In this document: positions 58,737 through 61,300 of the stretch, one piece after another | Layout: every line of letters begins with the position of its first letter | Position numbering within the stretch: the stretch's first letter is position 1 | Origin: a virus | DNA length: 64,000 nt | IMG/VR virus record: IMGVR_UViG_3300010397_000048 | Span: 1-64,000 of that record | Direction: 5' to 3' (one strand) | Notes under the pieces: generated by a model | Database searches by the model: none | Told to the model about the DNA's origin: nothing | Seen by the model: the letters and a program-made list of their open reading frames with translations, nothing else | Made by a program: the position numbers and the translations under genes

Positions 58737-58964
58737 CTAGAAAGGGTTATCAGGTTCACGCTTTCTAAGCTCAGTTAACAATGTTTCAGTATCCATAGTA
58801 GATGGATCTGCTGATCTTGATTGTGGTTCCTCGTCATCGATTTCAGGACTTAATTCAGGAATTCCTTCATCTTCAACATCAAACTGAACAGTATCAAACC
58901 ATTCTTTTAATAATGCTGCTTCTTCTTCAGCAGTAAAGGTATGAGCTTCATAAACATCAGTCAT
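58737..58964 (-). CDS. Hypothetical acidic protein, 75 aa
   Basis: 75 residues, acidic and helical (AHTFTAEEEAALLKEWFD). Stop 11 bases before the ART-like gene's start; ATG at the portal stop. Possibly an adaptor between portal and cargo. Confidence 0.62.
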   Translation of the reverse strand: MTDVYEAHTFTAEEEAALLKEWFDTVQFDVEDEGIPELSPEIDDEEPQSRSADPSTMDTETLLTELRKREPDNPF

Positions 58965-61300
58965 TACTCAATCCAGCTCCCATCCTTTACCCATGGTGTA
59001 AACACTGTCGGATTAATATAAGAACTTAATGCCATTGATGCATCATTTCCTAATTCAGTAGCAACTCGACGCCCGATTTCCTTACGTGCCTTCAAAAAAT
59101 CAGGCTTAGACTGAGGAGGTTCGATATTTTTAACCTCGCGCAATGCAACCACATTAGCGTGATTAGTACGTAGATCTTTTAGTAGAAATTCTTTAGGAAT
59201 TCCACCTTCACTATTCATATACCGACGTACTTTATCTTCATTAGTATTAAAAAGCTGTTCTTCCGAATCCTTACCGATATGACGAGATCGAAGAACATCG
59301 ACCACCTTAGAGTCATGTGTCTTTAGTACAATGTGGACTCCATCTTTACCAGTGAAATCAAGGGTTGCAGAGCCATCGTCATTGAAATGTACGTGCTTTG
59401 CTTTTAGGTTCGTAGCGCCGTGTGCTTGTACCTTTGCACCACGATTAGCATTAGACCCTGGTCGCATTCCCATCCGACGAATTAGAGTAAGTGCTCCCGC
59501 TTCATCGCTAGTTAATGCATCTCGCTCTAGTGCTGAATCCAATTTATCTAAATGGGGTTGCAATTCTTTGTTTCGCTGGAATTTCTTTTCGGCCTGACGT
59601 GCTGTGTGTTCCTTTGAATACCATGCTTGTCTACGACCTTTTGAATCTCGGCCTAAAACCTGAAGATCAGCAGTTTCTAAATTATCAGCAATTTGAACAT
59701 CAGTCCAAGCAGGAGGAATTGACTTACCAGTAACTTCTTTGAATCGAGCCTTACTTTCATCAGTTGCTGGTGACATTCCTTCTTTAGAAGCAAATTGTCC
59801 ACTAGCTTTACTGTGAATTTTATTAAAGCGCGATTCCGAAGTAGCAGCTTCGAATTCTTCATCTAAAATATCTAAAATAGAGCGTCCTGCTGCGGCATCC
59901 TGTTTACGTAATTTATCTTCTTGCTTTGTACGTCCACCTTCACCCGGTGAATTAGCACCGCTCTTTGGCGGAGACGGTGTACTATTCGCAGGATTAGGAG
60001 AATTCTGAGCCATCGCGTCACCCTGCACTTTAGCCAATTCCTGCTGCTGTGCCGATGCAATTTCGGAAAAGAACTTATCTCCGTCAGTAACTTTAGGAAG
60101 TCCTAATTTCATACGTGTTTCATTTTTAGTAGAAACATCTTTTTCAAATAGACCAACCCAAGTATCAGACAATTCCTTAAAGGTACCCATAAGCAATGCT
60201 GAGGTATCGAGTTCAATAAATGTACCCAAACCTTCATTACCAGGAGCATAAGCACTTAAGGCATCCTGTAAGCGCGTGATCCACGGTCCGAAAGTTCCCT
60301 GTAGCATTGCTGTATTTTGCTCTGCTAATCCAGAACCCCATGAGGTAGAAGCGCTTACAATTCCCACTCGGTGCGGCGGAACTCGGAACCATCTAGCGAT
60401 GTCAATTGCCTGATGTTCACGCGACTGAAGGAACTGTGCATCATCCGGCGGAATAGTGATTTGATGAATCTTTGCTCCACCCGATGCAATTGCTGGACGA
60501 TGCCAATTGTTCTTTCCTCTGTGGAATCGCTCGAATGTACGAACAATGTCCTTTGCCTTTGTTTCATCGACATTGTTAGGAATTTCCAAAACAATCTTAG
60601 CTTGTGACCCTTGACCGAAATAGCGGGCACCATATTCTTCTAAGGTAAGTCCTAATCCAATAGCTTCACGCGCATATTGAATTACTGACATTCCGGCAGG
60701 CATTCCTGGTAAAGTAGGTCCTTGCACATGGAAAATATCAAAAGACGTGTACCATGGTCCGTTACCACCAACACGATACCTACGGAATCCGGCCTTATTC
60801 GGGTCCCATTCCACAGTAACCGATGCAGGATCTAAAACATCCAATCCCACAATTACACCATCACTTGGACGACGACGGAAAGCAGCATACCCGTTTCCCC
60901 AAGTCAATGCAGAAACTAGTAATTGATTAAAAATATCAAATCTTCTAATTTCCGGGTGAGGCGCACGAATCCACTGTGGAACTTCCTGTTCCTGGCGATT
61001 ACCGTCAGCACCTAGTGTATAAGCGTGTGGTGGCAAAGAAGCAACACCATCAGCAATAAGTGTAATTGCAGCAAACACAACACCCATTTTAAAGGCCGAG
61101 TCCTCACTTACATACACACCACTATTGGTTTTAGTTCCTTCATCTTCATTTCCATAGACATTCCATGGGAGCACAGCGCGTAATTCTTCAGGCATTGAGT
61201 TCCATGCGTCTCTAGTTAATCCAGTTTCTGGATCATATTCGATAACCCTAGATTCAGTGGCAGACCGCTTGTTAATGCGGAATAAGTCAAAAAATGCCAC
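58964..61300 (-). CDS. Portal protein fused to a type IB topoisomerase
   Basis: 778 residues. Residues 1 to about 430 are an HK97-type portal (GVVFAAITLIADGVASLP, LLVSALTWGNGYAAFRRRP, REHQAIDIARWFRVPPHRVG). After a Pro/Ser linker, residues about 495-778 match bacterial/poxvirus type IB topoisomerase: IPPAWTDVQI (528), GRDSKGRRQAWY, R613 (RRMGMRPG), K652 (FTGKDG), R711 (KDLRTNHAN) and the nucleophile Y761 in SSYINP. The full catalytic set is present, so an active DNA-swivelling enzyme is expected on the portal. Portals normally stop near 450-500 residues. Confidence 0.82.
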   Translation of the reverse strand: MAFFDLFRINKRSATESRVIEYDPETGLTRDAWNSMPEELRAVLPWNVYGNEDEGTKTNSGVYVSEDSAFKMGVVFAAITLIADGVASLPPHAYTLGADGNRQEQEVPQWIRAPHPEIRRFDIFNQLLVSALTWGNGYAAFRRRPSDGVIVGLDVLDPASVTVEWDPNKAGFRRYRVGGNGPWYTSFDIFHVQGPTLPGMPAGMSVIQYAREAIGLGLTLEEYGARYFGQGSQAKIVLEIPNNVDETKAKDIVRTFERFHRGKNNWHRPAIASGGAKIHQITIPPDDAQFLQSREHQAIDIARWFRVPPHRVGIVSASTSWGSGLAEQNTAMLQGTFGPWITRLQDALSAYAPGNEGLGTFIELDTSALLMGTFKELSDTWVGLFEKDVSTKNETRMKLGLPKVTDGDKFFSEIASAQQQELAKVQGDAMAQNSPNPANSTPSPPKSGANSPGEGGRTKQEDKLRKQDAAAGRSILDILDEEFEAATSESRFNKIHSKASGQFASKEGMSPATDESKARFKEVTGKSIPPAWTDVQIADNLETADLQVLGRDSKGRRQAWYSKEHTARQAEKKFQRNKELQPHLDKLDSALERDALTSDEAGALTLIRRMGMRPGSNANRGAKVQAHGATNLKAKHVHFNDDGSATLDFTGKDGVHIVLKTHDSKVVDVLRSRHIGKDSEEQLFNTNEDKVRRYMNSEGGIPKEFLLKDLRTNHANVVALREVKNIEPPQSKPDFLKARKEIGRRVATELGNDASMALSSYINPTVFTPWVKDGSWIE

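What the first reader, a model, noticed from the sequence alone, without database searches (positions are those of the whole stretch)
58964..61300. Portal protein fused to a complete type IB topoisomerase
A normal HK97-type portal is followed by about 280 residues with every catalytic position of type IB topoisomerases (R613, K652, R711, Y761) and the family start IPPAWTDVQ. Twelve copies per virion would sit at the DNA entry/exit vertex. It could relieve torsion during packaging or ejection, or travel into the host with the first DNA. I know of no standard portal with this domain.
Basis: partly seen in the sequence, partly recalled or inferred. Interest (0 to 1): 0.8.

Follow-up and report, generated by a model that had tools for sequence, protein, structure and literature searches.

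The report
Phage portal carrying a DNA-relaxing enzyme
A soil phage makes the gateway protein of its DNA container with a complete, conserved DNA-relaxing enzyme (type IB topoisomerase) on its tail end, and many unrelated phages have hung the same enzyme on their gateway or other container proteins, so it is probably carried inside the virus particle to act on DNA at the start of infection.

Summary
The ORF lies on the minus strand (58964-61300, 778 aa, GTG start). It joins an HK97-type portal (Pfam E 6e-66) to a complete type IB topoisomerase (E 1e-15; confident predicted fold; best PDB match variola topoisomerase). All catalytic residues are present and invariant in 28 relatives, and dN/dS is about 0.03 against the nearest relative. 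It is the only portal found in its record.

It is not unique. Profile scans of IMG/VR gave 76 non-redundant TopIB ORFs. Thirty-four are fused to portals of four Pfam families; others to MuF or DUF2213 head proteins, sometimes with InPase, Zeta, NUDIX or ART domains. Sister phages with 61%-identical portals end exactly where the extension begins. They also lack the whole neighbouring block of variable genes, so the portal works without TopIB. A short linker motif (HPRDxxGKF and variants) precedes TopIB and, elsewhere, many known virion payloads.

Best reading: TopIB is a previously unnamed payload of the known 'enzyme on a head protein' kind, carried in the head and acting on DNA at the onset of infection. 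Torsion relief at the portal remains possible. Activity and virion location were not tested. The papers searched mention no such fusion.

The parts
58964..61300 (-). Portal-TopIB fusion ORF, 778 aa, GTG start
60101..61081 (-). HK97-type portal domain (PF04860), residues 74-400; only portal in the record
59885..59938 (-). Natural portal C-terminus (residues 455-472, DKLRKQDAA); TopIB-less sister portals stop here
59777..59884 (-). Linker (residues 473-508) ending in a divergent payload motif RFNKIHSKASGQFASKEG
58976..59794 (-). Complete type IB topoisomerase (residues 503-775), N-lobe plus catalytic domain
59018..59464 (-). Catalytic residues R613, K652, R711, N752, Y761
58737..58964 (-). 75-aa acidic protein, adjoining; part of the block absent from TopIB-less sisters
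57871..58725 (-). Variable-slot gene (284 aa) with NPYRDANGR and NPYHDKAGKFA motifs; C-terminal part swapped in relatives; ART-like by eye only
   Evidence: no Pfam hit and failed fold
57231..57896 (-). 221-aa protein with CxxC and HPHCDC (MuF-like by eye), conserved next to the variable slot
56352..57191 (-). Prohead protease S78 (PF04586)
54984..56285 (-). Major capsid protein (PF05065)
61312..63021 (-). Terminase large subunit

Best explanation
This is the sole portal protein of a long-tailed phage (tape measure protein at 44561-47866) whose natural C-terminus has been extended by a flexible linker and a catalytically complete type IB topoisomerase. TopIB is one of the enzymes that tailed phages hang on proteins of the head interior (portal, MuF, DUF2213) as payload. 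Proposed working, in steps. (1) Shown: one continuous ORF, the only portal found in the record, intact active site, strong purifying selection. (2) Follows from portal architecture: the C-terminus of HK97-type portals faces the capsid interior, so up to twelve TopIB domains would sit on flexible tethers among the packaged DNA. (3) Inferred: the enzyme is freed from the portal, perhaps by the phage's S78 protease cutting the linker, or is otherwise exposed at ejection, and enters or meets the cell with the first DNA. (4) Inferred: it relaxes supercoils without ATP in the incoming genome, or in the host chromosome, before phage genes are expressed.
For: Fusion, fold and active site. Purifying selection on TopIB (dN/dS 0.030 against L004) like that on the portal (0.040). 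The same payload on portals of four Pfam families (22 PF06381, 10 PF04860, 1 PF06074, 1 PF05136), on MuF (4 by Pfam) and DUF2213 (1) among 56 N-terminal parts. TopIB tree: the PF04860-portal label needs at least 3 changes, PF06381 at least 6 and MuF at least 4, so carriers were exchanged repeatedly. TopIB shares polypeptides with InPase (L026, L044), Zeta (L082) and ART plus 2'-5' RNA ligase-like domains (L049). Separate TopIB genes lie among MuF, portal, capsid, ART, NUDIX and Zeta genes. A blind search for the linker motif HPRDxxGKF returns head proteins and NUDIX, TopIB, Zeta, ART, RelA/SpoT, GNAT, InPase and PBECR domains. Cultured Pseudomonas phage Orimi01 has portal, motif and ART in the same layout. 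Sisters with 61%-identical portals lack TopIB together with the entire neighbouring block.
Against: No virion proteomics, cleavage or activity data. Within the window's clade TopIB is constant while the adjacent slot is swapped, which fits a housekeeping DNA role at least as well as an arms-race effector. The motif in the window clade is a divergent form that my strict pattern does not match. The linker was not shown to be a protease site. Twelve tethered TopIBs trapped as covalent DNA complexes could hinder ejection.
Confidence: 0.6

Rival explanations
1. Swivel at the portal: TopIB stays on the portal and relieves twist in the genome during packaging or ejection.
For: Portals are the commonest carrier (34 of 56 N-terminal parts); MuF, the other carrier, binds the portal in SPP1 (PMC5576092). 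TopIB is constant in the window clade. Whether packaging motors rotate DNA is disputed (PMC4060578 argues for torque-free revolution and cites Liu 2014 on DNA rotation).
Against: Sister phages with 61%-identical portals and 64-70%-identical capsids have no TopIB on the portal. The same carrier positions hold enzymes that cannot serve packaging (NUDIX, ART, Zeta, InPase). TopIB also occurs as separate genes.
Confidence: 0.22
2. It acts as a toxin or effector on the host nucleoid (for example disturbing host supercoiling or defence) rather than on the phage genome. This is a sub-case of the payload reading.
For: It shares carriers and polypeptides with domains thought to act on the host (Zeta, ART, RelA/SpoT).
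Against: Constant in the clade, unlike the swapped neighbours.
Confidence: 0.1
3. The domain is used for DNA binding or anchoring on the portal rather than for strand passage.
For: A tethered DNA-binding clamp on the portal is mechanically plausible.
Against: The full catalytic set is invariant in 28 divergent copies, which binding alone would not require.
Confidence: 0.07
4. The finding is an artefact (assembly chimera, read-through misread as fusion, or degenerate domain).
For: The sequences are metagenomic.
Against: Same fused ORF in at least 8 contigs of different metagenomes; independent fusions; dN/dS 0.03.
Confidence: 0.01

Closest known systems
Portal- and MuF-fused virion effectors / polyvalent proteins (Iyer et al. 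2017 PMC5512222; PMC9503650)
   Same: Enzymatic domain C-terminal to a portal or MuF protein, encoded among head genes, predicted to be packaged and injected
   Different: Domains named there for portal/MuF fusions include PBECR, 2H, InPase, NUDIX, ART and RelA/SpoT; topoisomerase occurs once in PMC5512222, in a reference title, and not at all in PMC9503650
MuF polymorphic toxins (Jamet et al. 2017 PMC5576092)
   Same: Conserved head-protein N-terminus with exchangeable C-terminal domain; SPP1 gp7 binds the portal
   Different: Carrier here is the portal itself; no topoisomerase mentioned
Poxvirus topoisomerase IB (variola 2h7f)
   Same: Same fold and catalytic residues, two-lobed minimal enzyme; from memory it is packaged in the virion
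   Different: Free enzyme in poxviruses, not attached to a structural protein; Asn here replaces the active-site His
Bacterial TopIB (D. radiodurans 2f4q/3m4a)
   Same: Closest sequence match in PDB, including the Asn at the fifth catalytic position
   Different: Standalone cellular enzyme
TopIB genes of cultured phages (Achromobacter phage Motura, Bacteroides phage BS162P1)
   Same: TopIB in a phage
   Different: Not annotated as fused to a head protein; neighbours shown include ssDNA-binding protein and adenine glycosylase (Motura) or hypothetical proteins only

Membership tests
HK97-type portal protein | PF04860 match over the full profile | tested here: met
   2-321 of 321, E 6e-66
HK97-type portal protein | Located between terminase and prohead protease/capsid | tested here: met
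   TerL - portal - S78 - MCP
HK97-type portal protein | Forms a dodecamer at one vertex | not testable with these tools
   inferred from family
Type IB topoisomerase | Catalytic Arg-Lys-Arg-His/Asn-Tyr | tested here: met
   R613 K652 R711 N752 Y761
Type IB topoisomerase | TopIB-specific N-terminal lobe (separates it from tyrosine recombinases) | tested here: met
   PF21338 match just under the Pfam cut-off in the window protein (22.9 of 27 bits) and over it in many relatives; whole-domain fold match to variola topoisomerase
Type IB topoisomerase | Relaxes supercoiled DNA without ATP | not testable with these tools
   needs assay
Virion-packaged payload on head protein (portal/MuF effector class) | Enzymatic domain fused to a head protein, exchangeable among carriers | tested here: met
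Virion-packaged payload on head protein (portal/MuF effector class) | Present in virions and delivered to the host | not testable with these tools
   needs proteomics and an injection assay
Polyvalent protein sensu Iyer 2017 | Two or more disparate enzymatic domains in one polypeptide | tested here: not met
   The window protein has one enzymatic domain; relatives L026, L044, L049 and L082 have more

The most novel reading that the evidence does not exclude
Many tailed phages fix a DNA swivel (TopIB) at or beside the portal so that the genome can turn freely as it enters or leaves the capsid. A short linker (HPRDxxGKF / NPYHDxxGRF) is a general signal that marks, sorts or releases payloads carried on head proteins.
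Probability: 0.25. Interest if true: 0.88.

Novelty: new variant of a known kind. Interest (0 to 1): 0.72.

Why it matters
A topoisomerase built into the DNA gate of a virus makes a long-standing question, how phage DNA copes with twist during packaging, ejection and first transcription, testable with a single active-site mutation. It adds a DNA-topology enzyme to the known list of payloads on phage head proteins. The shared linker motif could serve to find payloads of unknown function across phages.

Tried and rejected
Assembly artefact or chance: rejected. Tyrosine recombinase instead of topoisomerase: rejected by the TopIB N-lobe and fold. A one-off portal oddity: rejected. Structure of the neighbouring gene 57871-58725 failed (pLDDT 34) and Pfam gave nothing, so its ART identity is by eye only. 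The full-length model is poor over the portal because the alignment is shallow. The genome-contig scan with A2 failed for lack of a conserved stretch; with A1 it gave six TopIB loci in Dehalococcoidia MAGs and Flavobacterium, in open frames of 345-384 aa without room for a portal. Exact motif strings were not found in the paper library. Host of the window phage: not established; the terminase is under 40% identical to the best cultured phages.

Full report
What is there. The ORF at 58964-61300 is on the minus strand, starts with GTG and encodes 778 residues without interruption. Pfam finds the whole portal profile PF04860 at residues 74-400 (E 6e-66), the TopIB catalytic core PF01028 at 568-755 (E 1.3e-15) and part of the bacterial TopIB N-lobe PF21338 at 527-552. 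phmmer against PDB sequences aligns the C-terminal part with D. radiodurans topoisomerase IB (2f4q) and variola topoisomerase (2h7f) along nearly its full length. R613, K652, R711 and Y761 fall on the known catalytic residues, and N752 on the fifth, which is Asn in the bacterial enzyme and His in the poxvirus one. All five columns are invariant in 28 divergent relatives. AlphaFold2 models residues 503-775 with pLDDT about 90; the portal part is poor because the alignment is shallow. Foldseek's best hits are variola topoisomerase on DNA, D. radiodurans and human Top1, and HK97-type portals.

Not an artefact. The same fused ORF is complete in eight IMG/VR contigs from different metagenomes, 66-100% identical over the TopIB part. 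dN/dS against L004 is 0.030 for TopIB and 0.040 for the portal core; the segment between them, 401-490, changes faster. The fused gene is the only PF04860 match in the window's 64.7-kb record and in L005's 54.9-kb record. Seven records with PF06381-TopIB fusions likewise have no second portal above the cut-off. These virus records may be incomplete.

Natural with/without pair. A capsid search found L255, L256 and L257, whose portals are 61% identical to the window's but carry no TopIB. L256, L257 and L255 end in RKQDDANSA, RKQKEAKQ and RKQDEAKK, which align with window residues 465-472 (RKQDAAAG); in the window clade the reading continues into the linker and TopIB. In these sisters the next gene is the S78 protease: the 75-aa gene, the variable-slot gene or genes and the 221-aa gene are all missing. 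The TopIB extension and the variable block therefore come or go together, and a closely related portal works without TopIB. These contigs are short (5-6.5 kb), so TopIB elsewhere in those genomes is not excluded.

The neighbouring slot. In fused relatives the region between the portal gene and the 221-aa gene holds one to three genes whose N-terminal motif (NPYHDKAGKFA and variants) is kept while the rest differs. One gene in L005 has a zincin-like HEWGH; several look like ADP-ribosyltransferases by eye. Pfam does not confirm these and the fold of the window's copy failed, so they are tentative. TopIB itself is constant across the clade.

A recurrent payload. Two profile scans of IMG/VR (the second capped at 80 loci) gave 76 TopIB ORFs non-redundant at 90%. 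Of 56 with an N-terminal part over 120 aa, 34 match a portal family (22 PF06381, 10 PF04860, 1 PF06074, 1 PF05136), 4 match MuF and 1 DUF2213. Six carry InPase, three 2'-5' RNA ligase-like domains, and single ones Zeta, NUDIX or ART (individual cases). On a maximum-likelihood tree of TopIB domains, well-supported branches force at least 3 label changes for PF04860 portals, 6 for PF06381 portals and 4 for MuF (carrier labels partly from local profiles), so the domain has moved between carriers. Neighbours of separate TopIB genes include MuF, portal, DUF2213, capsid, NUDIX, ART and Zeta genes. Bacteroidota chromosomal TopIBs found for comparison sit in ordinary open frames of 334-392 aa.

A shared linker motif. 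Upstream of TopIB a short motif recurs, for example FxESEHPRDEDGKFGSGGG, NPFHDSQGRFATG, NQPRDDAGRWTSGG. A strict pattern occurs upstream of 37 of 71 TopIB domains against 10 of 1,134 background windows; the pattern was written after seeing the sequences, and it does not match the window clade's own divergent form. Of 63 scanned, Pfam gave PF06381 portal 13, NUDIX 6, TopIB 6, Zeta 5, DUF2213 5, ART families 3 and 2, MuF 3, RelA/SpoT 2, GNAT 2, InPase 1, PBECR 1 and SAM lyase 1, much the list of known phage head payloads. In cultured phages, Pseudomonas phage Orimi01 has a PF06381 portal, the motif and an ADP-ribosyltransferase, and a Helicobacter pametensis prophage has portal, motif and LPD3.

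What it does. Portal C-termini of this class face the capsid interior (established knowledge), and SPP1's MuF protein binds the portal (PMC5576092), so the portal and MuF carriers place TopIB inside the head near the DNA gate. Two uses remain: payload for the new cell, or a swivel during packaging or ejection. Shared slots and polypeptides with host-acting enzymes, repeated transfer among carriers, and working sisters without it favour payload (0.6). Constancy within the clade and preference for portals keep the swivel alive (0.22). Release by the S78 protease, entry into the cell and the DNA acted on are inferences.

The phage. Tape measure and tail proteins, DNA polymerase, primase/helicase, ribonucleotide reductase and 29 tRNA genes mark the window as a long-tailed phage. 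Its host is unknown; the terminase is under 40% identical to the best cultured phages.

Literature. In the open-access library, no paper combined 'portal protein', 'topoisomerase IB' and 'phage'. The key papers on polyvalent proteins and MuF toxins do not name topoisomerase as a payload. Subscription papers and preprints were not searchable, so priority is not certain. The class 'enzyme fused to a portal or MuF protein' is known; TopIB as a member, its recurrence, the with/without junction and the linker motif appear new.

Noticed in passing
Viral contigs L112-L191; cultured phages L103, L104, L105: The short motif [FW]xExxHPRDxxGKFxxGG recurs in phage head proteins just before, or at the start of, many payload domains; no paper found on it.
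   Followed up: partly
window 57871-58725 and L005, L006, L008, L009, L010: Polymorphic slot next to the portal: conserved NPYHD-type N-terminal motif with exchanged C-terminal domains, one with a zincin-like HEWGH.
   Followed up: partly
window 912-20614: 29 tRNA genes on the + strand.
   Followed up: no
window 63279-63995: Papain-family cysteine protease (Pfam Peptidase_C1, phrog_16701) directly upstream of the terminase.
   Followed up: no
window 16789-18252: Protein matching phrog_850 (labelled RNA-binding, E 2e-148) and Pfam DUF7788, DUF2828 and VWA.
   Followed up: partly
window 51226-53166: 646-aa structural-region protein with many diverged internal repeats (ASLSQNSTLVASALVTELPS-like).
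   Followed up: no
L023:2-3271: MuF-TopIB fusion with an intein-like splicing domain between the two.
   Followed up: no
L082:1662-5531: Portal-Zeta toxin-TopIB on a single polypeptide of 1290 aa.
   Followed up: no
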